NCBI RefSeq assembly: GCF_003112575.1
Contig: NZ_BEWC01000001.1
Coordinates: forward strand, 558,001 to 622,000
DNA from: Streptomyces ardesiacus
Lineage (GTDB): Bacteria; Actinomycetota; Actinomycetes; Streptomycetales; Streptomycetaceae
Direction: 5' to 3'
DNA: 64,000 nucleotides
A program made the translations under genes and the position numbers. The notes beneath the pieces are model-generated. The model was not told the origin of the DNA and ran no database searches. It saw only the letters and a program-made list of their open reading frames with translations. Positions within the stretch are counted from its first letter, which is position 1. The number at the start of each line of letters is the position of its first letter. This document shows positions 2,899-15,473 of this stretch, in pieces.

Positions 2899-3206
2899 AC
2901 CCATCCTTCACATCGGTCCTCGCGCCCCAAGTGTGCCGTACGAATCCGGCACTCTCGGCACTTCCCGGCACACCCGCATGTCCCGTGTGCCCGTGCGGGC
3001 ACCGGGGGCGGCCGGTCGGACACCGAGCAGGGGTCCGATGGAAGATCATTCCCGGGGCCGCCCGCCGGGAACCACCCGGTTCGCCCGGCCCGGGAGGGCG
3101 CCGTGGCGCAGCGGAAGCGGAAGGGGGCGCCGCACGGCGCGTTCCGCCGCGTACGCGCCCCCCGGATCCCGGACGGACCGGCGGCCCCGATGCGGCGTGC
3201 CGCGCC
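2899..3206. other. 308-bp intergenic region upstream of idi
   Basis: Lies between the end of the minus-strand cation exporter gene and the idi start, so it should hold the idi promoter and the 3' end of the exporter message. I see no convincing coding frame, tRNA or clear -35/-10 pair. The segment around 3115-3170 is very GC-rich with short self-complementary pieces but no long perfect hairpin. Confidence 0.5.
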
Positions 3207-4145
3207 TCAGTGGCACAGCCGCGCCTCGTGCTCCGCGTGACCGCTCGGTTCGAGCTGGAACGTGCAGTGCTCCACGTCGAAGTGGTCGCCCAGGCAGCCC
3301 TGCAGCTCGTGCAGCATCTTCTCGTGCCCGATCGCGCTCAGTGCCTCGCCGTTCACCACCACGTGCGCCGACAGGACGGGCATGCCCGAGGTGATCGTCC
3401 AGGCGTGCAGGTCGTGCACGTCCTCGACGCCGTCGAGGGCCAGTATGTGGGCGCGCACCTCGGCGATGTCCACGTTCTTCGGGGCGGCCTCGAGCAGCAC
3501 GTCCAGCGTCTCGCGCAGCAGCCGCACGGTACGCGGCACGATCATCAGGCCGATGACCAGCGACGCGATCGGGTCGGCGGGCTGCCAGCCGGTGGTCAGG
3601 ATCACCAGTGAGGAGACGATCACGGTCACCGAGCCCAACGCGTCCGCCGCCACCTCCAGGAAGGCGCCGCGCACGTTCAGGCTCTCCTTCTGGCCGCGCA
3701 TCAGCAGGCTCAGCGACACCGTGTTGGCGACCAGGCCGATCACACCGAACACGATCGCCAGTCCGCCGTCGGTGCCGGCGGGCGTGAGGAACCGCTCGAT
3801 CGCCTCGAAGAGGACGTAGCCCCCGACCCCGAGCAGCAGCACGCAGTTGGCCAGGGCCGCGAGGATCTCCGCACGGGCGTAGCCGAAGGTCCGCCGGTCG
3901 CTCGGGGGGCGGCCCGCGAAGTGGACGGCGAGCAGCGCCATGCCGAGACCCAGCGCGTCCGTGGCCATGTGCGCCGAGTCGGCGACCAGGGCGAGCGAGT
4001 CGGCGAGCAGGCCGCCGACGATCTGGACGACCATGACGAAGACGGTGATCGCCAGCGCCACCCGCAGTCGGCCCCGGTACTCGGCGGTCACCGTCGCGCC
4101 GGCGTGCCCCCCGTGTGCGTGCCCGTGATCGTGCCCTGCCCCCAT
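3207..4145 (-). CDS. cation diffusion facilitator (CDF) metal exporter
   Basis: A 312-residue CDF transporter with six predicted membrane segments and a cytoplasmic C-terminal domain (about residues 210-312). The His-rich N-terminus MGAGHDHGHAHGGHAG is typical of zinc-type CDFs. The first transport-site motif is intact (ADSAHMATDALGLGM), but in the second the usual His-x3-Asp pair reads E-V-A-A-D in FLEVAADALGSV, so one canonical ligand is Glu. The C-terminal domain has the usual DGVEDVHDLHAWTI segment. It probably exports a divalent metal for protons. The start at 4145 follows AAGGAGG 10 nt upstream; a reading 20 codons longer has no ribosome site. It is transcribed divergently from the envelope-lipid operon. 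Confidence 0.92.
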   Translation of the reverse strand: MGAGHDHGHAHGGHAGATVTAEYRGRLRVALAITVFVMVVQIVGGLLADSLALVADSAHMATDALGLGMALLAVHFAGRPPSDRRTFGYARAEILAALANCVLLLGVGGYVLFEAIERFLTPAGTDGGLAIVFGVIGLVANTVSLSLLMRGQKESLNVRGAFLEVAADALGSVTVIVSSLVILTTGWQPADPIASLVIGLMIVPRTVRLLRETLDVLLEAAPKNVDIAEVRAHILALDGVEDVHDLHAWTITSGMPVLSAHVVVNGEALSAIGHEKMLHELQGCLGDHFDVEHCTFQLEPSGHAEHEARLCH

Positions 4146-4621
4146 GAGAAAGCCGCCTCCTTGTCCGCGAGGGCGTCCGGCACCCGGCGCCCGGATGACA
4201 GTCAACTACGGGTAGGGGGTATCCGGCAACGCGGCACTGAACACCGTTGTCATGTGCCCTGACCTGGGCAAACGCCACGCAGGTCAGGGCGTCGCGCGGC
4301 ATTCGGAGGTGCCGCGTCCGCCCGCATGGGGGAGGGGCTGCCGAGGGTCGCCCTGACCCTGTGCGAACGACCGCCGACCCTGTGCGATGTCCGCGATGCC
4401 CGGGTTGGGGACGCGGTTTGTGGGGCGGGGCCCGGATCCACGATGATGATCGCGGCGAAGGCGGGTGCAAGCGGCGTCGACCGACCGTGAAACGGGCGGT
4501 GAACGCGGCGTTCCCGGCATCCGATAACCTCTGCCGACATGCCGCCCGGGTGCCCCAGGCACGGGCGCTCCACCATGCACAGGCCCGGCGCCCAGGCGCC
4601 GGCACCAGGGAGTGAGTTCGG
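4146..4621. other. 476-bp divergent intergenic region
   Basis: Separates the CDF exporter (minus) from the CDP-alcohol transferase operon (plus) and should carry both promoters. On the plus strand GTGAAC (4499-4504) and GATAAC (4523-4528), 18 bp apart, form a weak sigma-70-type pair. G/A-rich TACGGGTAGGGGGTATC near the exporter start is the only metalloregulator-like sequence; it is not a clean palindrome. No gene is supported here. Confidence 0.4.
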
Positions 4622-6439
4622 TTGCCGACCGCCATCCTCACCGGTCAGCCGGTCCCCGGTTCGTCGATCGAGAGCGAACTGCGGTCCCTGGGCTTCGACG
4701 TGCACCTCGCCTCCGGTGCCGCCGACACCGAGACCCTGCTGGCCCGCGTCCCGGGCGACGAGCGCGTCGCGGTGGTCGACGCCCGCTTCGTGGGCCATGC
4801 GCACGCCCTGCGCCTGGGCCTCACCGACCCCCGCTTCCCGCTCGCCGCGGTCCCGGGAGCCGTGACCGCCCAGCCCGCCGCCCGCCAGGCGCTGACCCGC
4901 GCGATGGCCCGGGAGAACTCCGCGGGCGGCGGCACCGCGCTCGCGGTGGACAGCCTCGCCGACCGGATCACCGCTGCCCTCGACGCCGACGGCGCCGACG
5001 TGCACCGCCCCGAACTGGGCAGCCTCGTCGCCGCCGTCCCCGCCGATCCGCAGGCCCGCAACGAGGCGCGGCAGGCCGTCGCCGCCGTCGACGACGAGGC
5101 CGTACGCCTGAAGTCGGCCGTCAAGGCCCGCGACGGCTTCGTCACCACCTTCTTCATCAGCCCCTACTCCCGCTACATCGCCCGCTGGTGCGCGCGCCGC
5201 GGCCTGACCCCCAACCAGGTCACCACCGCCTCGCTGATCACCGCGCTCATAGCGGCGGGCTGCGCCGCCACCGGTACCCGGGGCGGCTTCGTCGCCGCCG
5301 GCGTCCTGCTCATCGCCTCCTTCGTCCTCGACTGCACCGACGGGCAGCTCGCCCGGTACTCCCTGCAGTACTCCACGCTCGGCGCCTGGCTCGACGCCAC
5401 CTTCGACCGCGCCAAGGAGTACGCCTACTACGCGGGCCTGGCCCTGGGCGCCGCCCGCGGCGGCGACGACGTATGGGCCCTGGCCCTCGGGGCGATGGTC
5501 CTGCAGACCTGCCGACACGTCGTGGACTTCTCCTTCAACGAGGCCAACCACGACGCCACCGCCAACACCAGCCCCACCGCGGCCCTCTCCGACAAGCTCG
5601 ACAGCGTCGGCTGGACGGTCTGGCTGCGCCGCATGATCGTGCTGCCGATCGGTGAGCGCTGGGCCATGATCGCCGTCCTGACCGCGCTCACCACGCCCCG
5701 GATCACCTTCTACGCGCTGCTGATCGGCTGCGCGTTCTCCGCGACGTACACCACCGCCGGCCGCGTCCTGCGGTCGCTGACCCGCAAGGCCACGCGGACC
5801 GACCGGGCCGCGACGGCGCTCGCCGACCTCGCCGACTCCGGGCCGCTCGCCGAGGCCGCCGCCAGGGCGCTGCGCCCCGCCGCCCGCAGGCTGCCCGGCT
5901 TCGCCGTCCCCGCCGTCGCCCTCCTCGGCGGTGCCGCCGTCGTCGCCACGGCCGCGCTCACCGGCTTCGGCGGCCCCTGGCCGCTCGTCGCCGCGCTCGT
6001 CCACGTGCTGACCTCCGCCCTCGCCGTCGCCCGCCCCCTCAAGGGCGCCCTCGACTGGCTGGTCCCGCCCTTCTTCCGCGCCGCCGAGTACCTCACCGTC
6101 CTCTTCCTGGCCGCGAAGGCCGACGTGAACGGGGCCCTTCCGGCGGCTTTCGGGCTGGTGGCCGCGGTCGCCTACCATCACTACGACACGGTCTACCGCA
6201 TCCGCGGCGACGCGGGCGCGCCGCCGCGGTGGCTGGTGCGGACCATCGGGGGGCACGAGGGCCGCACGCTGGTGATCTGCGTGCTGGCCGTGCTGCTCAC
6301 CGCCCCACAGTTCACGCTCGCGCTCACGGTCCTCGCCGTGGCCGTGGCACTCGTGGTGCTCGTCGAGAGCATCCGCTTCTGGGTCGCCGCCCACCAGGTC
6401 GGCGCACCCGCCGTACACGACGAAGGAGAACCCGCATGA
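4622..6439 (+). CDS. CDP-alcohol phosphatidyltransferase with N- and C-terminal extensions (DUF5941-type)
   Basis: A 605-residue membrane protein. Residues 237-259 carry the full CDP-alcohol transferase signature: DCTDGQLAR, eight residues, Gly, three residues, Asp, three residues, Asp (ending AWLDATFD), with all four metal/catalytic aspartates present. Such enzymes transfer a phospho-alcohol from a CDP carrier onto a lipid or polyol. The N-terminal ~165 residues form a soluble, Rossmann-like segment, and the C-terminal ~200 residues hold further hydrophobic helices, so it is about three times the size of a minimal family member. The start is a TTG preceded by AGGGAGTGAG. The next gene overlaps by 4 nt (ATGA). 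Acceptor and donor are unknown. Confidence 0.85.
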   Translation: MPTAILTGQPVPGSSIESELRSLGFDVHLASGAADTETLLARVPGDERVAVVDARFVGHAHALRLGLTDPRFPLAAVPGAVTAQPAARQALTRAMARENSAGGGTALAVDSLADRITAALDADGADVHRPELGSLVAAVPADPQARNEARQAVAAVDDEAVRLKSAVKARDGFVTTFFISPYSRYIARWCARRGLTPNQVTTASLITALIAAGCAATGTRGGFVAAGVLLIASFVLDCTDGQLARYSLQYSTLGAWLDATFDRAKEYAYYAGLALGAARGGDDVWALALGAMVLQTCRHVVDFSFNEANHDATANTSPTAALSDKLDSVGWTVWLRRMIVLPIGERWAMIAVLTALTTPRITFYALLIGCAFSATYTTAGRVLRSLTRKATRTDRAATALADLADSGPLAEAAARALRPAARRLPGFAVPAVALLGGAAVVATAALTGFGGPWPLVAALVHVLTSALAVARPLKGALDWLVPPFFRAAEYLTVLFLAAKADVNGALPAAFGLVAAVAYHHYDTVYRIRGDAGAPPRWLVRTIGGHEGRTLVICVLAVLLTAPQFTLALTVLAVAVALVVLVESIRFWVAAHQVGAPAVHDEGEPA

Positions 6440-7188
6440 TCGGCCTCGTGCTGGCGGCCGGCGCCGGACGCCGTCTGCGCCCCTACACCGACACCCTGCC
6501 CAAGGCACTGGTCCCGGTCGGCCCCGAGGGCGCGGAGGACAGCATCACGGTGCTCGACCTGACGCTGGCGAACTTCGCCGAGGTCGGTCTGACGGAGGTC
6601 GGGGTCATCGTCGGCTACCGCAAGGAGGCCGTGTACGACCGCAAGGAGGAGCTGGAGCAGAAGTACGGCGTCAAGCTCACCCTCATCGACAACGACAAGG
6701 CCGAGGAGTGGAACAACGCCTACTCCCTGTGGTGCGGCCGTGACGCCCTCAAGGACGGCGTGATCCTCGCCAACGGCGACACCGTCCACCCGGTCTCCGT
6801 CGAGAAGACCCTGCTCGCCGCCCGCGGCGACGGCAAGAAGATCATCCTCGCCCTCGACACGGTGAAGAACCTCGCCGAGGAGGAGATGAAGGTCGTCGCC
6901 GACCCCGACAAGGGCGTGCAGCGCATCACCAAGCTCATGGACCCGGCCGAGGCGACCGGCGAGTACATCGGCGTCACCCTCATCGAGGGCGAGGCCGCCG
7001 CCGACCTGGCCGACGCGCTCAAGGCCACCTTCGAGCGCGACCCGCAGCTCTACTACGAGGACGGCTACCAGGAGCTCGTCAACCGCGGCTTCAAGGTCGA
7101 CGTGGCGCCGATCGGCGACGTCAAGTGGGTCGAGATCGACAACCACGACGACCTCGCCAAGGGCAGGGAGATCGCGTGCCAGTACTGA
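6436..7188 (+). CDS. LicC-like sugar/phosphocholine nucleotidyltransferase
   Basis: A 250-residue nucleotidyltransferase. The N-terminal signature LAAGAGRRLRPYTDTLPKAL (residues 5-24) binds the NTP; VILANGDTV carries the metal-binding Asp, and the C-terminal VKWVEIDNHDDL the second one. The segment EEWNNAYSLW resembles the LicC/phosphocholine cytidylyltransferase branch more than hexose-1-phosphate enzymes. In context it would charge a phospho-alcohol, probably with CTP, as donor for the two flanking CDP-alcohol transferases. Starts within the ATGA overlap with the preceding gene and has AAGGAGAA 6-7 nt upstream. Substrate (phosphocholine, glycerol phosphate or another alditol phosphate) is inferred only. 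Confidence 0.85.
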   Translation: MIGLVLAAGAGRRLRPYTDTLPKALVPVGPEGAEDSITVLDLTLANFAEVGLTEVGVIVGYRKEAVYDRKEELEQKYGVKLTLIDNDKAEEWNNAYSLWCGRDALKDGVILANGDTVHPVSVEKTLLAARGDGKKIILALDTVKNLAEEEMKVVADPDKGVQRITKLMDPAEATGEYIGVTLIEGEAAADLADALKATFERDPQLYYEDGYQELVNRGFKVDVAPIGDVKWVEIDNHDDLAKGREIACQY

Positions 7189-8237
7189 CGAGGCTCATCC
7201 CGTCGCCGGTCGTCGTGGACATCCGCGCGGGTGCCCTCGACGACCTGGGGTGCGTGCTCGCCGACGAACGCATCTCCCACTCGGGCAAGCTCGCCGTCGC
7301 CGTCAGCGGCGGCTCCGGCGCCAAGCTGCGCGAGCGCGTCGCCCCGTCCCTGCCCGGCGCCGACTGGTTCGAGGTCGGCGGCGGCACGCTGGACGACGCG
7401 ATCAAGCTGGCCGGCGCCATGAAGGGCGGTCACTACGACGCGGTCGTCGGCCTCGGCGGCGGCAAGATCATCGACTGCGCCAAGTTCGCGGCGGCACGCA
7501 TCGGCCTCCCGCTGGTCGCCGTGCCGACCAACCTCGCGCACGACGGCCTGTGCTCCCCGGTCGCCACCCTCGACAACGACGCGGGCCGCGGCTCCTACGG
7601 CGTGCCGAACCCGATCGCCGTCGTCATCGACCTGGACGTGGTGCGCGCCGCCCCGGCCCGCTTCGTGCGCGCCGGCATCGGCGACGCCGTCTCCAACGTC
7701 TCGGCGATCGCGGACTGGGAGCTGGCCAACCGCGTCAAGGGCGAGCGGATCGACGGACTGGCCGCCGCGATGGCCCGCCAGGCCGGCGAGGCCGTGCTGC
7801 GGCACCCCGGCGGCATCGGCGACAACGACTTCCTCCAGGTGCTGGCCGAGGCACTCGTCCTCACCGGCATCGCCATGTCGGTCTCCGGCGACTCGCGGCC
7901 CGCCTCCGGCGCCTGCCACGAGATCAACCACGCCTTCGACCTGCTCTTCCCCACCCGCGCCGCCGCCCACGGCGAGCAGTGCGGTCTGGGCGCGGCCTTC
8001 GCGATGTACCTGCGCGGGGCCCACGAGGAGTCCGCCCAGATGGCCGAGGTCCTGCGCCGCCACGGGCTGCCGGTGCTGCCCGAGGAGATCGGGTTCACGC
8101 CCGAGGAGTTCTTCCGGGCCGTGGAGTTCGCCCCCCGGACCCGGCCCGGCCGCTACACGATCCTCGAGCACCTCGACCTCACCACCGACCAGATCAAGGA
8201 CCTGTACGCCGACTATGTCAAGGCCATCGGTAGCTGA
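7176..8237 (+). CDS. sn-glycerol-1-phosphate dehydrogenase-like iron/zinc alcohol dehydrogenase
   Basis: A 353-residue dehydroquinate-synthase-fold protein. GLGGGKIIDCAKFAA is the NAD(P)-binding Gly-rich turn, VPTNLAHDGLCSPVA is the hallmark block of glycerol-1-phosphate dehydrogenases (VPTxxxHDGxxSP), and SGACHEINHAFD plus AAHGEQ supply metal-binding His residues. G1P dehydrogenases reduce dihydroxyacetone phosphate to the archaeal-type glycerol phosphate enantiomer; AraM/EgsA are bacterial examples. Between a cytidylyltransferase and a CDP-alcohol transferase it plausibly supplies the polyol phosphate. GTG start at 7176 with AGGGCAGGGAG upstream, overlapping the previous gene by 13 bp. The exact substrate is unproved. 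Confidence 0.85.
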   Translation: MPVLTRLIPSPVVVDIRAGALDDLGCVLADERISHSGKLAVAVSGGSGAKLRERVAPSLPGADWFEVGGGTLDDAIKLAGAMKGGHYDAVVGLGGGKIIDCAKFAAARIGLPLVAVPTNLAHDGLCSPVATLDNDAGRGSYGVPNPIAVVIDLDVVRAAPARFVRAGIGDAVSNVSAIADWELANRVKGERIDGLAAAMARQAGEAVLRHPGGIGDNDFLQVLAEALVLTGIAMSVSGDSRPASGACHEINHAFDLLFPTRAAAHGEQCGLGAAFAMYLRGAHEESAQMAEVLRRHGLPVLPEEIGFTPEEFFRAVEFAPRTRPGRYTILEHLDLTTDQIKDLYADYVKAIGS

Positions 8238-8994
8238 ACTACGCCCGGTCGTCCATCCCGCGGGGGTCAAGGACCGGCGCAGCGGTGAGCACTGGGCGGG
8301 ACGCCTCTACATGCGCGAGGTCTCGCTGCGGATCGACCGCTACCTGGTGAACACCAGGGTCACGCCCAACCAGCTCACGTACCTGATGACCGTCTGCGGC
8401 GTGCTCGCCGCCCCGGCGCTGCTCGTGCCGGGCGTGTGGGGCGCGGTGCTCGGCGTGGTCGCGGTCCAGCTCTACCTGCTGCTGGACTGCGTCGACGGCG
8501 AGGTCGCGCGCTGGAAGAAGCAGTACTCGCTCGGCGGCGTCTACCTGGACCGGGTCGGCGCCTACCTGACCGACGCCGCGGTCCTGGTCGGCCTCGGTCT
8601 GCGCGCCGCCGACCTCTGGGGCACCGGACGCATCGACTGGCTGTGGGCCTTCCTGGGCACCCTGGCCGCGCTCGGCGCCATCCTGATCAAGGCCGAGACC
8701 GACCTGGTGGGCGTCGCCCGCCACCAGGCCGGGATGGAGCCCGTGAAGGAGGCCGCCTCCGAGATCCGCTCCTCCGGCATGGCACTGGCCCGCCGGGCCG
8801 CCGGGGCGCTGAAGTTCCACCGGCTGATCCTCGGCATCGAGGCGTCCCTGCTGATCCTCCTCCTCGCGATCGTCGACCAGGTGCGCGGCGACCTGTTCTT
8901 CACCCGCCTCGGCACCGCCGTGCTCGCCGGCATCGCGCTGCTGCAGACGCTGCTGCACCTGGTGTCGGTCCTCGCCTCCAGCAGGCTGAAGTGA
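8215..8994 (+). CDS. CDP-alcohol phosphatidyltransferase with degenerate fourth Asp
   Basis: A 259-residue integral membrane protein with about six hydrophobic segments. Its active-site motif DCVDGEVAR is followed by eight residues, then G-VYL-D-RVG-A: the position that normally holds the fourth Asp (the general base) is Ala. The codons gac-cgg-gtc-ggc-gcc show this directly. Otherwise the protein looks intact, and the following YLTD could conceivably place a substitute Asp. The ATG lies inside the end of the dehydrogenase gene (23-bp overlap), implying translational coupling. It is either a variant transferase or a partner of the larger enzyme upstream. Confidence 0.85.
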   Translation: MSRPSVAELRPVVHPAGVKDRRSGEHWAGRLYMREVSLRIDRYLVNTRVTPNQLTYLMTVCGVLAAPALLVPGVWGAVLGVVAVQLYLLLDCVDGEVARWKKQYSLGGVYLDRVGAYLTDAAVLVGLGLRAADLWGTGRIDWLWAFLGTLAALGAILIKAETDLVGVARHQAGMEPVKEAASEIRSSGMALARRAAGALKFHRLILGIEASLLILLLAIVDQVRGDLFFTRLGTAVLAGIALLQTLLHLVSVLASSRLK

Positions 8995-9875
8995 GCGCGC
9001 CCATGAAGGTCGGCGCCGTCGTCATCACGATGGGCAACCGCCCCGAGGAACTGCGTGCCCTGCTCGACTCCGTCGCCAAGCAGGACGGCGACCCGGTCGA
9101 GGTCGTCGTGGTCGGCAACGGCGCCCCCGTCCCGGAGGTGCCCGAGGGCGTGCGCACCGTCGAACTGCCCGAGAACCTGGGCATCCCCGGCGGCCGCAAC
9201 GTCGGCATCGAGGCCTTCGGCCCCGGCGGCGGCGACGTCGACATCCTGCTCTTCCTCGACGACGACGGCCTGCTCGCCCGCACCGACACCGCCGAGCTGT
9301 GCCGCCGGGCCTTCGCCGACGACGACGAGCTGGGCATCATCAGCTTCCGCATCGCCGACCCGGACACCGGCGAGACCCAGCGCCGGCACGTCCCGCGGCT
9401 GCGCGCCTCCGACCCGATGCGCTCCTCCCGGGTCACCACCTTCCTCGGCGGCGCCAACGCGGTGCGCACCCGGGTCCTCGGCCAGGTCGGCGGGCTGCCG
9501 GACGCGTTCTTCTACGCCCACGAGGAGACCGACCTGGCCTGGCGGGCCCTCGACGCGGGCTGGATGATCGACTACCGGTCCGACATGGTCCTGAACCACC
9601 CCACCACCGCGCCCTCGCGGCACGCGGTCTACCACCGCATGGTGGCCCGCAACCGCGTCTGGCTCGCCCGCCGCAACCTCCCGGCCCTCCTGGTCCCGGT
9701 CTACCTCGGCGTGTGGATGGCCCTCACCCTGCTGCGCCGCCCGTCCCGGCCCGCCCTGAAGGCCTGGTTCGGCGGCTTCCGCGAGGGCTGGGCCACCCCG
9801 TGCGGTCCCCGTCGGCCCATGCGGTGGCGTACGGTGTGGCGGCTGACCCGGCTGGGCCGGCCCCCGGTGATCTGA
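8991..9875 (+). CDS. family 2 glycosyltransferase
   Basis: A 294-residue GT-A fold glycosyltransferase. The N-terminal VVITMGNRPEELRALLDSV begins the nucleotide-binding half, LFLDDDGLL (Asp90-92) is the metal-binding DxD-type motif, and AHEETDLAWRALDAGW is the ED/acceptor-site region seen in rhamnosyl- and galactofuranosyl-type GT2 enzymes. It ends in a short amphipathic/hydrophobic segment, suggesting a membrane-facing location. The GTG at 8991 overlaps the upstream stop by 4 nt; ATG at 9003 (four codons later) is an equally good start. Sugar donor and acceptor are not predictable; it would decorate or elongate the product of the preceding enzymes. Confidence 0.88.
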   Translation: MSAPMKVGAVVITMGNRPEELRALLDSVAKQDGDPVEVVVVGNGAPVPEVPEGVRTVELPENLGIPGGRNVGIEAFGPGGGDVDILLFLDDDGLLARTDTAELCRRAFADDDELGIISFRIADPDTGETQRRHVPRLRASDPMRSSRVTTFLGGANAVRTRVLGQVGGLPDAFFYAHEETDLAWRALDAGWMIDYRSDMVLNHPTTAPSRHAVYHRMVARNRVWLARRNLPALLVPVYLGVWMALTLLRRPSRPALKAWFGGFREGWATPCGPRRPMRWRTVWRLTRLGRPPVI

Positions 9876-9971
9876 CAAGCTCGTACCGAGAGCGTTCCGG
9901 CCCCGACCGGGGCCACGAGGTCCACGCAGGCCCGAGCGGCCGAGCACTTCCGAAGACGAAAGTTTCCACCA

Positions 9972-10901
9972 GTGAGTGAGACAACGCACGACGGCACGGT
10001 CGCCATGACCAGGCCCGTGTCGCCCGACGAGGGCCTCACACCGGCCCGGCTCGCCGCCAAGTACGGGCTGTCCGTGAGCGGTGCCCGACCTTCCCTCGTG
10101 GAGTACGTCCGTCAGCTCTGGGGGCGGCGGCACTTCATCCTCGCCTTCTCCCAGGCGAAGCTGACCGCCCAGTACAGCCAGGCCAAACTCGGCCAGATCT
10201 GGCAGGTGGCCACCCCGCTGCTGAACGCCTTCGTCTACTTCGCGATCTTCGGTCTGATCCTCAAGGCGGGCCGCGGCATGCCCAAGGAGGTGTACATCCC
10301 GTTCCTGGTGACGGGTGTGTTCGTCTTCACCTTCACCCAGTCCTCCGCGATGGCGGGCGTGCGCGCCATCTCCGGCAACCTCGGACTGGTGCGGGCGCTG
10401 CACTTCCCGCGCGCCTCGCTGCCCATCTCGTTCGCGCTCCAGCAGCTCCAGCAGCTGCTCGCCTCGATGATCGTCATGTTCGCGGTCGTCATCGGCTTCG
10501 GCAGCTACCCCTCGCTGTCCTGGCTGCTGGTCCTGCCGGCGCTCGTCCTGCAGTTCCTGTTCAACGTGGGCCTGGCGCTCATCGTGGCCCGCATGGGGGC
10601 CAAGACCCCGGACCTGGCCCAGCTCATGCCGTTCATCATGCGGACCTGGATGTACGCCTCGGGCGTCATGTTCTCCATCCCGATCATGCTGAAGGACAGC
10701 CCGGGGTGGGTCTCCGACCTGCTCCAGTGGAACCCGGCCGCCGTCTACATGGACCTGATCCGCTTCGCGCTGATCGACGGGTACGGCTCCGAGAACCTGC
10801 CGCCGCACGTGTGGGCGGTCGCCCTCGGCTGGGCCGTGGTCCTCGCCGTGGGCGGCTTCGTGTACTTCTGGAAGGCGGAGGAGAGGTACGGCCGTGGCTG
10901 A
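9972..10901 (+). CDS. ABC-2 type exporter permease (TagG/Wzm-like)
   Basis: A 309-residue permease with an ~60-residue cytoplasmic N-terminus and six hydrophobic segments. The region SQAKLTAQYSQAKLGQIWQV precedes the first membrane helix exactly as in Wzm/TagG polysaccharide exporters, and WNPAAVYMDLIRFALIDG is the family C-terminal signature. With the next gene it should form a two-component exporter for lipid-linked glycan or a teichoic-acid-like polymer. GTG start at 9972; the 96-bp gap from the glycosyltransferase is the only real spacing in this operon, so an internal promoter is possible. The next gene overlaps by 8 bp. Confidence 0.9.
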   Translation: MSETTHDGTVAMTRPVSPDEGLTPARLAAKYGLSVSGARPSLVEYVRQLWGRRHFILAFSQAKLTAQYSQAKLGQIWQVATPLLNAFVYFAIFGLILKAGRGMPKEVYIPFLVTGVFVFTFTQSSAMAGVRAISGNLGLVRALHFPRASLPISFALQQLQQLLASMIVMFAVVIGFGSYPSLSWLLVLPALVLQFLFNVGLALIVARMGAKTPDLAQLMPFIMRTWMYASGVMFSIPIMLKDSPGWVSDLLQWNPAAVYMDLIRFALIDGYGSENLPPHVWAVALGWAVVLAVGGFVYFWKAEERYGRG

Positions 10902-11673
10902 GCAGCAGCAGGACCAGCGGGTGCCGACGGTCATCGCGGACGAACTGCACATCGTCTACCGCGTCAACGGCGCCAGGACCGGCAAGGGCAGCGCCACCGC
11001 CGCGCTCAGCCGCATCCTCAGGCGCGGCGAGGAGCGGGGCGTGCGCAAGGTGCACGCCGTGCGCGGCGTCTCCTTCACCGCCTACCGGGGCGAGGCCATC
11101 GGCCTGATCGGCTCCAACGGCTCCGGCAAGTCGACGCTGCTGCGGGCCATCGCCGGCCTGCTGCCCGCCGAGCGCGGCAAGGTCTACACCGACGGCCAGC
11201 CCTCCCTGCTCGGTGTGAACGCGGCCCTGATGAACGACCTGACCGGCGAGCGGAACGTCATCCTCGGCGGCCTGGCCATGGGCATGTCCCGCGAGCAGAT
11301 CAAGGCGCGCTACCAGGACATCGTCGACTTCTCGGGCATCAACGAGAAGGGCGACTTCATCACCCTGCCGATGCGCACCTACTCCTCCGGCATGGCCGCC
11401 CGGCTGCGCTTCTCCATCGCCGCCGCCAAGGACCACGACGTCCTGATGATCGACGAGGCGCTGGCCACCGGTGACCGCAAGTTCCAGACCCGTTCCGAGG
11501 AGCGGATCCGGGAGCTGAAGAAGGAGGCCGGCACCGTCTTCCTGGTCAGCCACAACAACAAGTCCATCCGCGACACCTGCAACCGGGTCCTGTGGCTGGA
11601 GCGCGGCGAGCTGCGCATGGACGGCCCGACCGACGAGGTGCTCAAGGAGTACGAGAAGTTCACGGGCAAGTAG
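10894..11673 (+). CDS. ABC exporter ATPase (TagH/Wzt-like)
   Basis: A 259-residue ATPase. Walker A is GSNGSGKS (residues 73-80), Walker B VLMIDE (183-188), the H-loop lies in LVSHNN, and the signature is the degenerate YSSGMAARLRFS typical of TagH/Wzt/KpsT exporters rather than LSGGQ. The ~50 residues before Walker A include the extra charged insertion GSATAALSRILRRGEERG seen in this subfamily. There is no C-terminal carbohydrate-binding domain, so export is probably of the processive TagGH/KpsMT kind and not Wzt cap-recognition. Last gene of the operon; a strong hairpin follows 8 nt after the stop. Confidence 0.92.
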   Translation: MAEQQQDQRVPTVIADELHIVYRVNGARTGKGSATAALSRILRRGEERGVRKVHAVRGVSFTAYRGEAIGLIGSNGSGKSTLLRAIAGLLPAERGKVYTDGQPSLLGVNAALMNDLTGERNVILGGLAMGMSREQIKARYQDIVDFSGINEKGDFITLPMRTYSSGMAARLRFSIAAAKDHDVLMIDEALATGDRKFQTRSEERIRELKKEAGTVFLVSHNNKSIRDTCNRVLWLERGELRMDGPTDEVLKEYEKFTGK

Positions 11674-11681
11674 TCCGACAC

Positions 11682-11720
11682 GCCGGGGCCGCACCGGAAC
11701 ACTTCCGGCGCGGCCCCGGC
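11682..11720 (+). terminator. hairpin terminator after the exporter operon
   Basis: An 11-bp perfect inverted repeat (GCCGGGGCCGC, 11682-11692, with 11710-11720) whose loop contains a second CCGG/CCGG pairing. It sits 8 nt beyond the ATPase stop and isolates the operon from the hopanoid cluster. Confidence 0.75.
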
Positions 11721-11970
11721 TCTGCAAAGGAAACGTCAACTCCTGGCGTTCTCAGGAATCTTGAAGCCGGACGGTGTGTTGTGGTGGTGGCCCGTGCACC
11801 CCGACGGACGCCCGTGAGTTGTACAACGTAAGCTGTACCGGTCCCGAAACGCTGCACATGGGGCGATAATGCCCGACACCCTCGAGCGGGCCTGCCGCGC
11901 GGGTGGCGGGGCGGCGTGTCCGAAATAGTGTGTATTGAGTCGGCAGTGTAGAACGGGAGATGTGACGGCA

Positions 11971-12036
11971 ATGGCTACGGAAACTCCCCGGCTCCCCGAA
12001 GCGTGCGCCGTCCCCGTCCAGGGCAGCCCGCGATGA
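11971..12036 (+). CDS. possible 21-aa leader peptide upstream of hpnC
   Basis: ATG at 11971 opens a 21-codon frame beginning MATETPRLPEA whose TGA (12034-12036) overlaps the hpnC ATG at 12033 in the ATGA configuration. A GGGAG lies 11 nt upstream of its ATG. The geometry suggests translational coupling to hpnC. No known attenuator-type residue run is present. It may instead be a non-coding leader; an in-frame GTG for a longer HpnC also exists at 12003. Confidence 0.35.
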   Translation: MATETPRLPEACAVPVQGSPR

Positions 12037-12935
12037 CGGCCACCGAGGCGGCGCGCGCCGTCGACCCGGAGCAGGGCACCCTCGCCAAGGCAGCCGACGA
12101 GAACTTCCCCGTCGCCCCCTTCTTCCTGCCCCGCGCCTGGCGCACCGACCTCATGGCCGTGTACGGCTTCGCCCGCCTGGTCGACGACATCGGCGACGGC
12201 GACCTCGCCCCCGGCGGCGCCGACGCCCGACTCCTCGGCGTCCCCGCGGACCGCGCCGACGACCGGCTGGTGATGCTGGACGCCTTCGAGGAGGACCTGC
12301 GCAGGGTCTTCGACGGCACCCCCCGCCACCCGCTGCTGCGCCGCCTGGTGCCCACCGTGCGCCGCCGCTCGCTGACCCCCGAGCCCTTCCTCGGGCTGAT
12401 CGCCGCCAACCGCCAGGACCAGCTCGTCGCACGCTACGAGACCTACGACGACCTCCTCGCCTACTGCGAGCTGTCCGCCAACCCGGTCGGCCGGCTCGTG
12501 CTCGCCGTCACCGGCACCTCGACCCCCGAACGGATCCGCCGCTCCGACGAGATCTGCACCGCCCTGCAGATCGTCGAGCACCTCCAGGACGTCGCCGAGG
12601 ACCTCGGCCGGGACCGGATCTACCTGCCCGCCGAGGACATGAAACGTTTCCACGTCCGGGAGAGCGACCTCGCGGCTCCCACCGCGAACGCGTCGGTGCG
12701 CGCCCTGATCGCCTACGAGGCCGCCCGCGCCCGGGACCTGCTGAATGAAGGAGCCCCCCTGGTGGGTAGCGTCCACGGCAGGCTGCGGCTGCTCCTGGCG
12801 GGGTTCGTGGCGGGCGGAAGGGCCGCGTTGAGCGCGATCGCCGCGGCGCAGCACGACGTACTTCCCGGCCCGCCGAGGTCAGGCAAGGTCCGCTTGCTGC
12901 GCGAGGCGGGATTGGTCCTGCGAGGAGAGGGGTGA
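12033..12935 (+). CDS. hpnC: hydroxysqualene synthase HpnC
   Basis: A 300-residue trans-isoprenyl-diphosphate synthase of the squalene/phytoene synthase superfamily. The aspartate-rich motifs are ARLVDDIGDGD near residue 47 and HLQDVAEDLGRDRIYLP near residue 185. In the three-step bacterial squalene route (HpnD, HpnC, HpnE) this enzyme converts presqualene diphosphate to hydroxysqualene. Identity as HpnC rather than HpnD rests on position as the first of a tandem pair and on the divergent N-terminus DENFPVAPFFLPRAWR, which is typical of HpnC. The stop overlaps the hpnD GTG by 4 nt. First structural gene of the operon. Confidence 0.92.
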   Translation: MTATEAARAVDPEQGTLAKAADENFPVAPFFLPRAWRTDLMAVYGFARLVDDIGDGDLAPGGADARLLGVPADRADDRLVMLDAFEEDLRRVFDGTPRHPLLRRLVPTVRRRSLTPEPFLGLIAANRQDQLVARYETYDDLLAYCELSANPVGRLVLAVTGTSTPERIRRSDEICTALQIVEHLQDVAEDLGRDRIYLPAEDMKRFHVRESDLAAPTANASVRALIAYEAARARDLLNEGAPLVGSVHGRLRLLLAGFVAGGRAALSAIAAAQHDVLPGPPRSGKVRLLREAGLVLRGEG

Positions 12936-13882
12936 TCGGGACCGTGGAGTCGTCAGCGAACATGCCGGCACCGGTGCTCGCCGCCTACAGCTACTGCGAG
13001 GCCGTCACCGGTCAGCAGGCACGCAACTTCGCCTACGGCATCCGGCTGCTGCCCACGCCCAAGCGGCGGGCGATGTCCGCGCTGTACGCGTTCTCGCGCC
13101 GCGTCGACGACATCGGCGACGGGGCGCTGCCGGACGACGTCAAGGTCGCCCGGCTGGACGAGACCCGGGCCGTGCTCGCCCGGATCCAGGACGGCGCGGT
13201 CGAGGAGGACGACACCGACCCCGTCGCCGTCGCCCTCGCCCACGCCGCCCGGAGGTTCCCGATCCCGCTCGGCGGCCTCGACGAACTGATCGACGGCGTC
13301 CAGATGGACCTGCGGGGCGAGACCTACGAGACCTGGGACGACCTGAAGGTCTACTGCCGCTGCGTGGCGGGCGCCATCGGACGCCTCTCGCTCGGCGTCT
13401 TCGGCACCGAGCCGGGGGCGCGCGGCGCCGACCGCGCGCCCGAGTACGCCGACACGCTCGGGCTCGCGCTGCAGCTCACCAACATCCTGCGCGACGTCCG
13501 GGAGGACGCCGAGGGAGGGCGCACCTACCTGCCCGCCGACGACCTCGCCAAGTTCGGCTGCTCGGCCGGGTTCGACGGTCCGACGCCCCCCGAGGGCTCC
13601 GACTTCGCCGGTCTCGTCCACTTCGAGGTGCGCCGGGCCCGCGCCCTCTTCGCCGAGGGCTACCGGCTGCTGCCCATGCTCGACCGGCGCAGCGGCGCCT
13701 GCGTGGCCGCCATGGCGGGCATCTACCGCCGCCTCCTCGACCGCATCGAGCGCGACCCGGAGGCCGTGCTGCGCGGCCGGGTCTCCCTGCCCGGACGCGA
13801 GAAGGCGTACGTCGCCGTGCGCGGCCTGTCCGGCCTCGACGCCCGGCACGTCACCCGGCGGGCCGTCAGGAGGCGCGCCTGA
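12932..13882 (+). CDS. hpnD: presqualene diphosphate synthase HpnD
   Basis: A 316-residue squalene/phytoene-synthase fold protein that condenses two farnesyl diphosphates into presqualene diphosphate, the substrate for HpnC. Motifs: ARNFAYGIRLLP near the N-terminus, SRRVDDIGDGAL as first Asp-rich motif, and LTNILRDVREDAEGGRTYLP as second. GTG start at 12932 within a GTGA overlap, preceded by GAGGAGAGG; a GTG at 12944 is possible but sits too far from it. Directly followed by a small coupled gene whose ATG overlaps this stop (TGATG). Confidence 0.95.
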   Translation: MIGTVESSANMPAPVLAAYSYCEAVTGQQARNFAYGIRLLPTPKRRAMSALYAFSRRVDDIGDGALPDDVKVARLDETRAVLARIQDGAVEEDDTDPVAVALAHAARRFPIPLGGLDELIDGVQMDLRGETYETWDDLKVYCRCVAGAIGRLSLGVFGTEPGARGADRAPEYADTLGLALQLTNILRDVREDAEGGRTYLPADDLAKFGCSAGFDGPTPPEGSDFAGLVHFEVRRARALFAEGYRLLPMLDRRSGACVAAMAGIYRRLLDRIERDPEAVLRGRVSLPGREKAYVAVRGLSGLDARHVTRRAVRRRA

Positions 13883-14040
13883 TGGACACACCGGGCACAC
13901 TCGACACCCAGGACCCGTGCACAACGATCGGCGGACAGCAGGGGGCAACCCTCCGGTGGCGGTCGGCGTCCCTGACTGAGACGGTCAGCCGTACACCGTT
14001 CACACACCACGGCGGCCGGACAGGGAAGGGCGCACCATGA
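13882..14040 (+). CDS. 52-aa small protein coupled between hpnD and hpnE
   Basis: An open frame of 52 codons plus stop starting MDTPGTLDTQDPCTTIGG and ending HHGGRTGKGAP. Support comes from geometry: a perfect AGGAGG (13870-13872 region, 9 nt before the ATG), start overlapping the hpnD stop as TGATG, and stop overlapping the hpnE ATG as ATGA. It therefore fills the only gap in the squalene-forming part of the operon. The product is polar, Thr/Gly-rich, without a signal peptide or membrane helix, and has no recognisable domain. Gene order suggests it is the equivalent of S. coelicolor SCO6761. Function is unknown; it could be a small accessory protein or only a translational relay. Confidence 0.65.
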   Translation: MDTPGTLDTQDPCTTIGGQQGATLRWRSASLTETVSRTPFTHHGGRTGKGAP

Positions 14041-15473
14041 CGCAGGGCAACGGCACGCGCGACCGCGGAGTGCTCGCGGACGTCCCGGCCTCCGGGCCCG
14101 GCGGGCACGCCGTCGTGGTCGGCGGCGGACTCGCCGGGGTCACCACCGCGCTCGCGCTCGCCGACGCCGGCATGCGCGTCACCCTGCTCGAAGGGCGCCC
14201 CCGCCTGGGCGGGCTCGCCTTCTCCTTCCAGCGCGGCGACCTCACCGTCGACAACGGCCAGCACGTGTTCCTGCGCTGCTGCACCGCCTACCGGTGGTTC
14301 CTCGACCGGATCGGCGGAGCCGCGCTCGCACCGGTGCAGGAACGTCTCGACGTGCCCGTGGTCGACCTGGACAGGGCCGAGGGCAACCGGCTCGGCAGAC
14401 TGCGGCGCGACGCGCTGCCCGTGCCCCTGCACCTGGGGCGCAGCCTGGCGGCCTACCCGCACCTCTCCCTCGCCGAACGCGCCTCGGTGGGGCGTGCCGC
14501 GCTCGCGCTCAAGGGGCTCGACCCGGCCGACCCGGCCCTGGACGGCCAGGACTTCGGCAGCTGGCTGGCCGCGCACGGTCAGTCGGCGCGTGCCGTCGAG
14601 GCCCTGTGGGACCTGGTCGGGGTCGCCACCCTCAACGCGGTCGCGGGCGACGCCTCCCTGGGGCTCGCCGCGATGGTGTTCAAGACCGGTCTGCTGTCCG
14701 ACCCGGGAGCGGCCGACATCGGGTGGGCCCGTGTCCCGCTGGGCGAACTGCACGACCGGCTGGCCCGCAAGGCGCTCGACTCCGCGGGCGTCCGTACCGA
14801 GGTCCGTACACGCGTCACCTCCGTCTCCGTGAACGAGAACGGCGGCTGGAGCGTTCAGGTTCCCGGCGAGACGCTCGAAGCGGACGCCGTCGTCCTCGCC
14901 GTACCCCAGCGCGAGGCCCACGACCTGCTGCCGGAGGGTGCGCTGGACGCCCCGGAAGATCTTCTGCGGATCGGCACCGCCCCGATCCTCAACATCCACG
15001 TCGTCTACGACCGCAAGGTGCTCGCCACGCCCTTCCTCACGGCGCTCGGCACCCCGGTGCAGTGGGTGTTCGACCGTACCGAGGCCTCCGGGCTGAAGGA
15101 GGGTCAGTACCTGGCGCTGTCCCAGTCGACCGCGCAGAACGAGATCGACGAGCCCGTGGCCGTGCTGCGCGAGCGGTACCTGCCCGAACTGGAGCGGCTG
15201 CTGCCGCGCACCCGGGGCGCCGAGGTGAAGGACTTCTTCGTGACCCGGGAGCGCGCCGCGACCTTCGCCCCGGCCCCCGGCGTCGGCCGCCTCAGGCCCG
15301 GCGCCCGCACCAAGGCACCCGGCCTCTACCTGGCCGGAGCGTGGACCGCCACCGGGTGGCCCGCGACCATGGAGAGTGCGGTTCGCAGCGGCGTCGGGGC
15401 GGCGGCCGCCGCGCTCGGCGCCCTGGGCCGGTCCCGCGGCCTCCTCCCCGACTTCTTCGAGGAGGCCGCGTGA
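14037..15473 (+). CDS. hpnE: hydroxysqualene dehydroxylase / squalene-associated FAD oxidoreductase HpnE
   Basis: A 478-residue amine-oxidase-fold flavoprotein. The FAD-binding turn is VVVGGGLAGVTTALALADAG (about residues 24-43) followed by the GRPRLGGLAFSF loop, and the C-terminal LYLAGAWTATGWPATMESAV supplies the second FAD contact. HpnE reduces hydroxysqualene to squalene, completing the three-enzyme route. The ATG at 14037 has AGGGAAGGG upstream and overlaps the small upstream gene by 4 nt. Length matches characterised HpnE proteins. Confidence 0.93.
   Translation: MTQGNGTRDRGVLADVPASGPGGHAVVVGGGLAGVTTALALADAGMRVTLLEGRPRLGGLAFSFQRGDLTVDNGQHVFLRCCTAYRWFLDRIGGAALAPVQERLDVPVVDLDRAEGNRLGRLRRDALPVPLHLGRSLAAYPHLSLAERASVGRAALALKGLDPADPALDGQDFGSWLAAHGQSARAVEALWDLVGVATLNAVAGDASLGLAAMVFKTGLLSDPGAADIGWARVPLGELHDRLARKALDSAGVRTEVRTRVTSVSVNENGGWSVQVPGETLEADAVVLAVPQREAHDLLPEGALDAPEDLLRIGTAPILNIHVVYDRKVLATPFLTALGTPVQWVFDRTEASGLKEGQYLALSQSTAQNEIDEPVAVLRERYLPELERLLPRTRGAEVKDFFVTRERAATFAPAPGVGRLRPGARTKAPGLYLAGAWTATGWPATMESAVRSGVGAAAAALGALGRSRGLLPDFFEEAA

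What the first reader, a model, noticed from the sequence alone, without database searches (positions are those of the whole stretch)
4622..11673. Uncharacterised seven-gene route for a CDP-alcohol-derived envelope glycolipid or polymer
The sequence shows a near-gapless operon coding for a glycerol-1-phosphate-dehydrogenase-like enzyme, a LicC-like cytidylyltransferase, two CDP-alcohol transferases, a GT2 enzyme and a TagGH/Wzm-Wzt-type exporter. Together these supply a polyol phosphate, activate it with CTP, transfer it, glycosylate and export it. I know of no described product for this set. If the dehydrogenase truly makes sn-glycerol-1-phosphate, the product would carry the archaeal-type stereochemistry. 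Adjacency to the hopanoid operon hints at a shared envelope role.
Basis: partly seen in the sequence, partly recalled or inferred. Interest (0 to 1): 0.72.

Follow-up and report, generated by a model that had tools for sequence, protein, structure and literature searches.

The report
Archaeal-handed teichoic-acid operon in Streptomyces
A seven-gene block conserved across Streptomyces is predicted to make a mirror-image (archaeal-type) glycerol phosphate, activate it with CTP, and likely load it onto a membrane lipid for export as a teichoic-acid-like envelope polymer, which would help explain how these bacteria build such polymers without the usual supply enzyme.

Summary
Window 4622-11673 carries seven genes: a DUF5941 CDP-alcohol phosphotransferase (A), a LicC-like nucleotidyltransferase (B), a G1P-dehydrogenase-like enzyme (C), a second CDP-alcohol-transferase homologue (D), a GT2 (E) and a TagGH-type exporter (F, G). 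All seven lie in order in 71 of 80 named loci; D is in 148 of 150 Streptomycetaceae genomes.

The best reading is a teichoic-acid-type pathway, not a hopanoid accessory. An 83%/70% exporter paralogue lies among TagF-like genes in the same genome. TagF-like, LCP or TagA genes neighbour some distant versions. 141 of 150 family genomes have TagF-like enzymes, but none has a TagD match above cut-off. A natural B-A fusion exists. A's model has AF2299 architecture (AF2299's donor is CDP-glycerol), and its membrane part also matches choline phosphotransferases (lipid acceptor). No PcrB was found, so the Bacillus G1P lipid is unlikely.

The predicted G1P hand equals that of lipoteichoic acid, whose synthesis in Streptomyces (no clear LtaS orthologue) is open. 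D lacks the putative catalytic Asp4 in all 104 D-type sequences read (88 Ala, 16 His), so 'two transferases' is doubtful. A conserved hairpin separates the operon from the hopanoid genes. Substrates and product are inferred.

The parts
4492..4552 (+). Conserved upstream block of the operon, possible promoter region
   Evidence: 75 aligned upstream sequences (window plus 74 loci) share near-invariant runs here, including TGAAC and CCGATA(A/G)CCTCTGCCGACATGCCGCC. No consensus sigma-70 promoter was found by the scan.
4622..6439 (+). A: cytidylyltransferase-like N-domain (about 1-156) + CDP-alcohol phosphotransferase core (168-388) + DUF5941 membrane domain (394-605)
6436..7188 (+). B: LicC/IPCT-like nucleotidyltransferase, predicted CTP:glycerol-phosphate cytidylyltransferase
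   Evidence: Best PDB match CTP:phosphocholine cytidylyltransferase LicC over residues 3-111. 61% identical to the C-terminal domain of P0147, a natural A-B fusion.
7176..8237 (+). C: sn-glycerol-1-phosphate-dehydrogenase-like enzyme
   Evidence: NF002022 G1PDH 244 bits versus 90 for glycerol dehydrogenase. PDB 3ce9, 4rgq, 4rfl, 5fb3. Asp/His/His aligned with archaeal G1PDH at D170, H248, H265.
8215..8994 (+). D: CDP-alcohol phosphotransferase homologue without the fourth signature Asp (Ala here)
   Evidence: Pfam PF01066 34.8 bits. DCVDGEVAR...GVYLDRVGA; Ala or His at Asp4 in all 104 D-type sequences read.
8991..9875 (+). E: family-2 glycosyltransferase
   Evidence: PF00535 41.1 bits. GTG start in frame.
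9972..10901 (+). F: TagG/Wzm-type ABC permease
   Evidence: PF01061. PDB matches 9cfp/9cfl 50 bits, TarG 6jbh 34, an O-antigen permease 31; best NCBIfam match galactan exporter Wzm, 52.6 bits, far below cut-off. 70% identical paralogue near TagF-like genes in the same genome.
10894..11673 (+). G: TagH-type ABC ATPase
   Evidence: NCBIfam TagH 187.5 bits, galactan Wzt 160.3. PDB TarH 6jbh 187.5, TagH 7dd0 185.3, O-antigen type 144. 83% identical paralogue next to a TagF-like gene.
11682..11720 (+). GC-rich hairpin just after the stop of G, likely the end of the transcript
   Evidence: Fold z-score -6.0, 0 of 200 shuffles as good. In 67 of 75 loci the 75 nt after G fold at -35 kcal/mol or better, against 3 of 74 elsewhere in the same gap and 5 of 75 inside G. 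No T-tailed terminator was found by the scan.

Best explanation
The seven genes form a conserved operon-like block that is predicted to make sn-glycerol-1-phosphate (C), activate it to CDP-glycerol (B), likely transfer phosphoglycerol from it to a membrane lipid acceptor (A), and would then glycosylate the product (E) and export it (F, G) as a teichoic-acid-type envelope polymer. Shown by sequence: the gene set, its order and conservation, the intact catalytic signature of A, the altered signature of D, a natural B-A fusion, a TagH-like exporter ATPase, and TagF-like, LCP or TagA genes beside some related clusters. Predicted by model: A has the AF2299 architecture (degenerate cytidylyltransferase domain plus six-helix transferase), and its membrane part including DUF5941 also matches choline phosphotransferases, which use a soluble CDP-alcohol donor and a lipid acceptor. 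Inferred: DHAP as substrate of C; glycerol phosphate and CTP as substrates of B; a lipid-linked sugar, glycolipid or diacylglycerol as acceptor of A; chain extension by the TagF-like enzymes encoded elsewhere in the genome; D as a CDP-binding partner of A or a transferase with changed chemistry. The G1P hand would give the stereochemistry known for lipoteichoic acid (sn-1) rather than wall teichoic acid (sn-3).
Against: No enzyme was tested. C is below the G1PDH model cut-off and could reduce another ketone. B is below every NCBIfam cut-off and its acceptor is unknown. The operon has no polymerase, and in this genome the TagF-like genes lie elsewhere. The choline phosphotransferase match is strong only in the second-look aligner: in Foldseek these entries rank 17 to 25 with E 0.009 to 0.25. 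In CEPT1 the extra helices serve dimerization and the product lipid is held by TMs 2-6 (PMC10156783, passages), so DUF5941 does not by itself prove a lipid acceptor. F alone does not separate TagG from O-antigen or galactan permeases. S. coelicolor walls mainly contain teichulosonic acid, with a polydiglycosylphosphate as minor polymer (PMC7831098, passages), so glycerol phosphate need not be the major polymer here. 45 of 150 genomes carry a 58-68-bit relative of TagD; the one compared with PDB is closest to phosphoethanolamine cytidylyltransferase, but a glycerol-phosphate role is not excluded. A second IspD-type match in this genome is weak but over the Pfam cut-off (30.8 against 27 bits), so CDP-ribitol supply is not excluded. 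At phylum level the exclusion of TagD and C is not significant (0 of 13 genomes with TagD matches of 109 bits or more have C; p 0.14). Some clusters are incomplete or split: within the family, L160 and L161 show no A or G match in the stretch read; elsewhere G204 and G108 are split and L179 shows no B. Several distant C homologues (f9) sit with phosphodiesterase-type genes rather than such exporters.
Confidence: 0.5

Rival explanations
1. The operon is a CDP-glycerol supply and priming unit for ordinary wall teichoic acid made by the TagF-like enzymes elsewhere in the genome; the glycerol ends up in wall polymer whatever its hand, and the operon's own exporter is a second TagGH.
For: 8 PF04464 genes in this genome, TagD model over cut-off in 0 of 150 genomes, exporter paralogue next to a TagF-like gene.
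Against: The separate exporter, the GT2 and the lipid-acceptor-like architecture of A suggest a product of its own; seven of the nine genomes without a PF04464 match keep D.
Confidence: 0.2
2. C reduces something other than DHAP (for example a cyclic or longer ketose) and the CDP-alcohol is not CDP-glycerol; the exported molecule carries another polyol phosphate, as IPCT-DIPPS enzymes do with inositol phosphate.
For: C and B are below family cut-offs; B and A relate to inositol-phosphate enzymes as well.
Against: C is far closer to G1PDH than to glycerol dehydrogenase or dehydroquinate synthase models (244, 90 and 26 bits); TagF-like, glycerol-phosphate-type neighbours.
Confidence: 0.17
3. The product is a short exported phosphoglycolipid, not a polymer: one phosphoglycerol is put on a lipid, sugared once and flipped.
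For: No polymerase in the operon; CEPT-like architecture of A; G has 259 residues and no extra C-terminal domain was matched.
Against: TagGH-type exporters are known for long teichoic chains (general knowledge); LCP and TagA neighbours in two related clusters.
Confidence: 0.15
4. The operon modifies or partners hopanoids, as its position next to the hopanoid genes suggests.
For: HpnC and HpnD follow the operon in most of the 80 named loci.
Against: The stretches of up to 20 kb around the L036, L037, L039, L153, L155, L156, L159, L176 and L178 clusters show no HpnC/HpnD match; a conserved hairpin follows the operon.
Confidence: 0.03
5. C feeds a Bacillus-type heptaprenylglyceryl phosphate lipid.
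For: C is an AraM/G1PDH relative.
Against: No PcrB match in this genome, while the same search rings in 7 of 14 controls, B. subtilis among them (5 of the 7 over the cut-off).
Confidence: 0.02

Closest known systems
Wall teichoic acid pathway TagO-A-B-D-F-GH-TUV (Bacillus subtilis 168)
   Same: CDP-glycerol-type donor, priming of a membrane acceptor, glycosylation, TagGH export (pathway as in PMC7086022, passages); G matches TarH and TagH, F more loosely TarG.
   Different: No TagD, TagB or TagF in the operon; a G1PDH-like enzyme and a LicC-type enzyme would take the place of TagD, and CDP-alcohol phosphotransferases that of TagB.
Archaeoglobus AF2299 and IPCT-DIPPS enzymes
   Same: N-terminal cytidylyltransferase-like domain fused to a CDP-alcohol phosphotransferase; AF2299 takes CDP-glycerol.
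   Different: A has an extra 200-residue membrane domain (DUF5941) and a separate nucleotidyltransferase B; the product is predicted to be exported.
Choline/ethanolamine phosphotransferases CEPT1 and CHPT1
   Different: Eukaryotic, donor CDP-choline or CDP-ethanolamine, no exporter; sequence identity only 10-12%; weak in Foldseek.
Bacillus AraM plus PcrB (archaea-type lipid in bacteria)
   Same: G1PDH-type first step.
   Different: No PcrB in this genome; G1P is predicted to go to CTP activation instead of prenylation.
Non-TagD glycerol-phosphate cytidylyltransferases of glycerophosphoinositol synthesis (Rodrigues 2017, seen only as reference 20 in PMC8262930; paper not held)
   Same: A CDP-glycerol route outside the TagD family, with stereospecificity as the point of its title.
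   Different: Intracellular solute in hyperthermophiles (recalled); not compared by sequence here.

Membership tests
sn-glycerol-1-phosphate dehydrogenase (NF002022) | Score above the curated cut-off (413 bits) | tested here: not met
   244 bits, still the best NCBIfam match
sn-glycerol-1-phosphate dehydrogenase (NF002022) | Metal-ligand Asp/His/His and SRPASG/HGEQCG-type motifs in register with archaeal G1PDH | tested here: met
   Alignments to 4rgq and 4rfl; D170, H248, H265. That these are the metal ligands is recalled.
sn-glycerol-1-phosphate dehydrogenase (NF002022) | Activity on DHAP giving G1P | not testable with these tools
   Needs an enzyme assay
Class I CDP-alcohol phosphotransferase, protein A | D1xxD2GxxAR...GxxxD3xxxD4 | tested here: met
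   Invariant in 35 aligned sequences; D..D in 85 of 86 readable best hits, the exception being a D-gene hit; 3 more hits unreadable
Class I CDP-alcohol phosphotransferase, protein D | D4, putative catalytic base; D-to-N at this site nearly abolishes activity in a PIP synthase (PMC4634129) | tested here: not met
   Ala in 88 and His in 16 of 104 D-type sequences
Class I CDP-alcohol phosphotransferase, protein D | Pfam PF01066 above cut-off and D1-D3 | tested here: met
   34.8 bits against 22; DCVDG..AR and LD present
LicC/IPCT-type cytidylyltransferase, protein B | Sequence relation to LicC and IPCT | tested here: met
   1jyk (LicC) 50 bits over 3-111, 4jd0 (nucleotidyl transferase; that it is an IPCT is recalled) 32.5 bits over 4-241
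LicC/IPCT-type cytidylyltransferase, protein B | CTP and glycerol-phosphate specificity | not testable with these tools
   No NCBIfam model above cut-off
Teichoic acid exporter TagGH | G: closest solved relatives are TarH/TagH rather than O-antigen ATPases | tested here: met
   TarH 187.5, TagH 185.3, O-antigen type 144 bits
Teichoic acid exporter TagGH | F: closest relatives are TagG rather than Wzm | tested here: inconclusive
   PDB: 9cfp/9cfl (ATPase partner named TagH) 50, TarG 34, O-antigen 31 bits; NCBIfam: galactan Wzm 52.6 bits best, below cut-off
Teichoic acid exporter TagGH | NCBIfam TagH (NF010066) cut-off 320 bits | tested here: not met
   187.5 bits, best match
Canonical wall teichoic acid pathway | TagD-type glycerol-3-phosphate cytidylyltransferase in the genome | tested here: not met
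   TIGR01518 best 36 bits, cut-off 165.4, in this genome; 0 of 150 family genomes over cut-off
Canonical wall teichoic acid pathway | TagF/TagB-type PF04464 enzymes in the genome | tested here: met
   8 in this genome, present in 141 of 150 in the family
Canonical wall teichoic acid pathway | TagO and TagA linkage-unit enzymes in this genome | not tested
   TagA seen only beside the distant cluster L041

The most novel reading that the evidence does not exclude
Streptomyces make their glycerol-phosphate teichoic acid, lipoteichoic acid above all, from archaeal-handed sn-glycerol-1-phosphate: a G1PDH feeds a LicC-type enzyme that makes CDP-1-glycerol, and a choline-phosphotransferase-like enzyme (DUF5941) loads it onto the lipid anchor inside the cell before TagGH-type export. 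This would replace TagD and LtaS at once, give lipoteichoic acid its known sn-1 hand by a wholly different, cytoplasmic route, and explain why its gene D is kept by 148 of 150 genomes of the family.
Probability: 0.27. Interest if true: 0.85.

Novelty: new variant of a known kind. Interest (0 to 1): 0.62.

Why it matters
How actinobacteria make poly(glycerol phosphate) lipoteichoic acid without a clear LtaS orthologue is stated as open in print (PMC3196553, passages), and the source of CDP-glycerol for Streptomyces TagF-like enzymes is unexplained by the TagD search here. This operon offers one testable answer to both. It also offers a use for archaeal-handed G1P in bacteria outside the Bacillus lipid, a predicted role for DUF5941, and a conserved family of CDP-alcohol transferase homologues that has lost its putative catalytic base.

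Tried and rejected
Hopanoid link: rejected as explanation. PcrB route: no match. Phosphonate route (Fe-ADH + cytidylyltransferase): considered because PntC-type enzymes appear among weaker matches; no PEP mutase search was run, so it is untested. CDP-ribitol supply by a second IspD/TarI: one strong match and one weak match that is still over the Pfam cut-off (30.8 against 27 bits), so not excluded. AlphaFold of D: poor (pLDDT 47, 10 close sequences), not used. A simple consensus scan found no sigma-70 promoter and no T-tailed terminator in 3000-14100, so the hairpin claim rests on folding and conservation. My first hairpin threshold was too loose (107 of 228 controls passed) and was replaced. 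The exclusion of TagD and C across the phylum was tried and is not significant (p 0.14 for 13 genomes with 109 bits or more, p 0.30 for the 8 over cut-off). In one search the label C- at the start of a row means the CDF transporter, not gene C; relabelled.

Rows dropped before counts: for the Asp4 count I left out four distant best hits with Asp (L041, L042, L046, L048; 27-36% identity, which I take for other CDP-alcohol enzymes) and the rows of L154 and L158, which are hits to gene A. For gene A I left out hits that are the D genes of their loci. Three A hits had no readable motif, and two of the A rows. Of the 545 confirmed loci only the best 80 were returned, so that set is close to the window.
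Full report
WHAT IS THERE. The window is from a genome of 7.85 Mb in 31 contigs. By gene C the nearest named record is Streptomyces coelicoflavus (98%; records of this very genome may be left out there). The start of A at TTG 4622 follows an AGGGAG stretch and lies in a conserved upstream context.

CONSERVATION. Of 80 named loci (the best 80 of 545 confirmed hits, so a close set), 71 hold all seven genes in order. Gene D is in 148 of 150 Streptomycetaceae genomes. DUF5941 is in 19 of 396 genomes of the phylum and in none of 14 controls; C-like genes at E 1e-20 are in 41 of 296. Among four stretches from other genera of the family, L162 holds all seven with the hopanoid genes, L159 all seven without them, and L160 and L161 show no A and no G match. 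Outside the family, all seven stand in the same order in G338 and G553 (L153, L178). A-B-C-D-E stands with F-G some kilobases on in G086 (L036), without F-G in L037 and L156, and behind G-like matches in L176; B-C-D-A-E with F-G in L155; F-G-B-C-D-E without A in L039. G204 (L035, L157) and G108 (L038, L158) are split, and L179 shows no B. No HpnC/HpnD match lies in these outside-family stretches of up to 20 kb.

NEIGHBOURS THAT NAME THE PRODUCT CLASS. (a) In this same genome, contig 14 holds an F/G pair 70% and 83% identical to the window's pair; one PF04464 gene (CDP-glycerol:poly(glycerophosphate) glycerophosphotransferase) is directly next to G and two more lie within 11 kb. (b) In G204 one strand reads F-like (26%), G-like (40%), A (38%), TagF-like, nearly without gaps. 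(c) In G386 a PF04464 gene lies inside the cluster on the other strand. (d) PF04464 genes also lie near A in G399 and near C in G121. (e) An LCP gene precedes the cluster in G183, one ORF away. (f) In G003 (1.8 Mb) one strand reads a B-like gene, a 997-residue ORF, C, a CDP-alcohol enzyme and a TagA/WecG gene. (g) Other neighbours are sulfotransferases (G086), a UDP-sugar dehydrogenase and an L,D-transpeptidase (G045). Each of (b)-(f) is one or two cases, not a statistic; I looked at about 30 stretches and at the Pfam content of selected neighbours only.

SUPPLY OF CDP-GLYCEROL. 141 of 150 family genomes have PF04464 enzymes. The TagD model passes its cut-off in 0 of the same 150, but in 8 of 296 genomes of the phylum and in 2 of 14 controls (the output does not name the two), so it can find such genes. 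45 of 150 have a 58-68-bit relative, 20 more have 28-47 bits and 85 have none. One of the 45 was compared with PDB and is closest to phosphoethanolamine cytidylyltransferase. So 101 of 141 PF04464 genomes lack a TagD-like match of 58 bits or more, and all 101 have D, since only G409 and G412 lack it. Both of those also lack PF04464; that happens by chance with p 0.003, but it is two genomes. Across the phylum, none of 13 genomes with TagD matches of 109 bits or more has C, which is not significant (p 0.14).

PROTEIN D. The fourth Asp of the signature, the putative base, is Ala in 84 Streptomyces sequences and His in 4 distant ones; 16 further D-type sequences give 12 His and 4 Ala. None of the 104 has Asp. 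Asp-to-Asn at this site nearly abolishes activity of a PIP synthase while leaving binding intact (PMC4634129). D is thus a conserved variant that may bind CDP-alcohol without the usual chemistry, or may use a nucleophile that needs no base. That is inference.

PROTEINS B AND C. B is LicC-like and only weakly close to any named model. PMC11324152 (passage) mentions a CDP-glycerol synthase named Gtp2 as a relative of another nucleotidyltransferase; the pneumococcal Gtp pathway itself is recalled. C is nearest to G1PDH models and structures, with the metal-site residues in register, but below the curated cut-off. PMC5059525 used a S. coelicoflavus protein as a G1PDH in its alignment (passages); whether it is C was not checked.

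STEREOCHEMISTRY. Wall teichoic acid of B. subtilis is sn-glycerol-3-phosphate and lipoteichoic acid is sn-glycerol-1-phosphate (PMC7086022, passages). Streptomyces hygroscopicus makes poly(glycerol phosphate) lipoteichoic acid, and clear LtaS orthologues are lacking (PMC3196553, passages). A G1P-based CDP-glycerol would give the lipoteichoic hand directly. One TagF-like polymerase, Cps7D, makes polymer from G1P, whereas Cps3D does not (PMC8262930, passages). Hence the novel case.

TRANSCRIPTION. A strong hairpin follows G in this window (z -6.0) and in relatives (67 of 75 at -35 kcal/mol or better, controls 3 of 74 and 5 of 75). With the 329-base gap to the HpnC ORF, the hopanoid genes are likely a separate unit.

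PRIOR ART. PMC13118837 (2026; passages) already notes the syntenic set CDP-alcohol enzyme, GT2, nucleotidyltransferase, araM, tagG, tagH, crtB and files it under teichoic acid biosynthesis and secondary metabolism, with the nucleotidyltransferase duplicated in 76 genomes. It proposes no route in the passages I saw. S. coelicolor gene numbers near SCO6752-SCO6758 are my recall; searching SCO6752-SCO6756 plus DUF5941 gave one paper, on causal network inference, which names SCO6753 twice (listing only, not read).

VERDICT. Observation confirmed; interpretation partly supported and sharpened to a teichoic-acid-type, TagD-independent route; substrates untested.

Noticed in passing
L034 9427-10584 (G000 contig 7), own genome: A second C-type dehydrogenase, 74% identical to gene C, lies between an ORF that looks like Obg (recognised by eye) and an RNase E/G gene, with two PF04464 genes within 10 kb. 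Among the 9 same-genus genomes, this one included, only this one had a second match.
   Followed up: partly
L191 1438-1947 and L193 (other Streptomyces-family genomes): 45 of 150 family genomes have a TagD/ECT-like cytidylyltransferase; in the two loci read, an ORF with a CDP-alcohol-transferase motif (by eye) lies next to it, another unexplained CDP-alcohol pair.
   Followed up: partly
L163, L182, L183: Second D copies (53-54% identical), also with Ala at Asp4, lie in some Streptomyces-family genomes without an A, B or C match in the stretch read.
   Followed up: no
L042, L046, L047, L048 (family f9): C homologues next to B-like nucleotidyltransferases, without an F match; L046 has a type I phosphodiesterase gene and similar-looking ORFs lie in L047 and L048. 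Possibly a different product.
   Followed up: no
window 4492-4552: Highly conserved upstream block in 75 sequences with no consensus sigma-70 match; may hold an alternative-sigma promoter or a regulator site.
   Followed up: no
L036, L154, L155, L156: Sulfotransferase-like genes recur inside or beside distant clusters (Pfam in L036; by similarity in the others), suggesting sulfated variants of the product.
   Followed up: no
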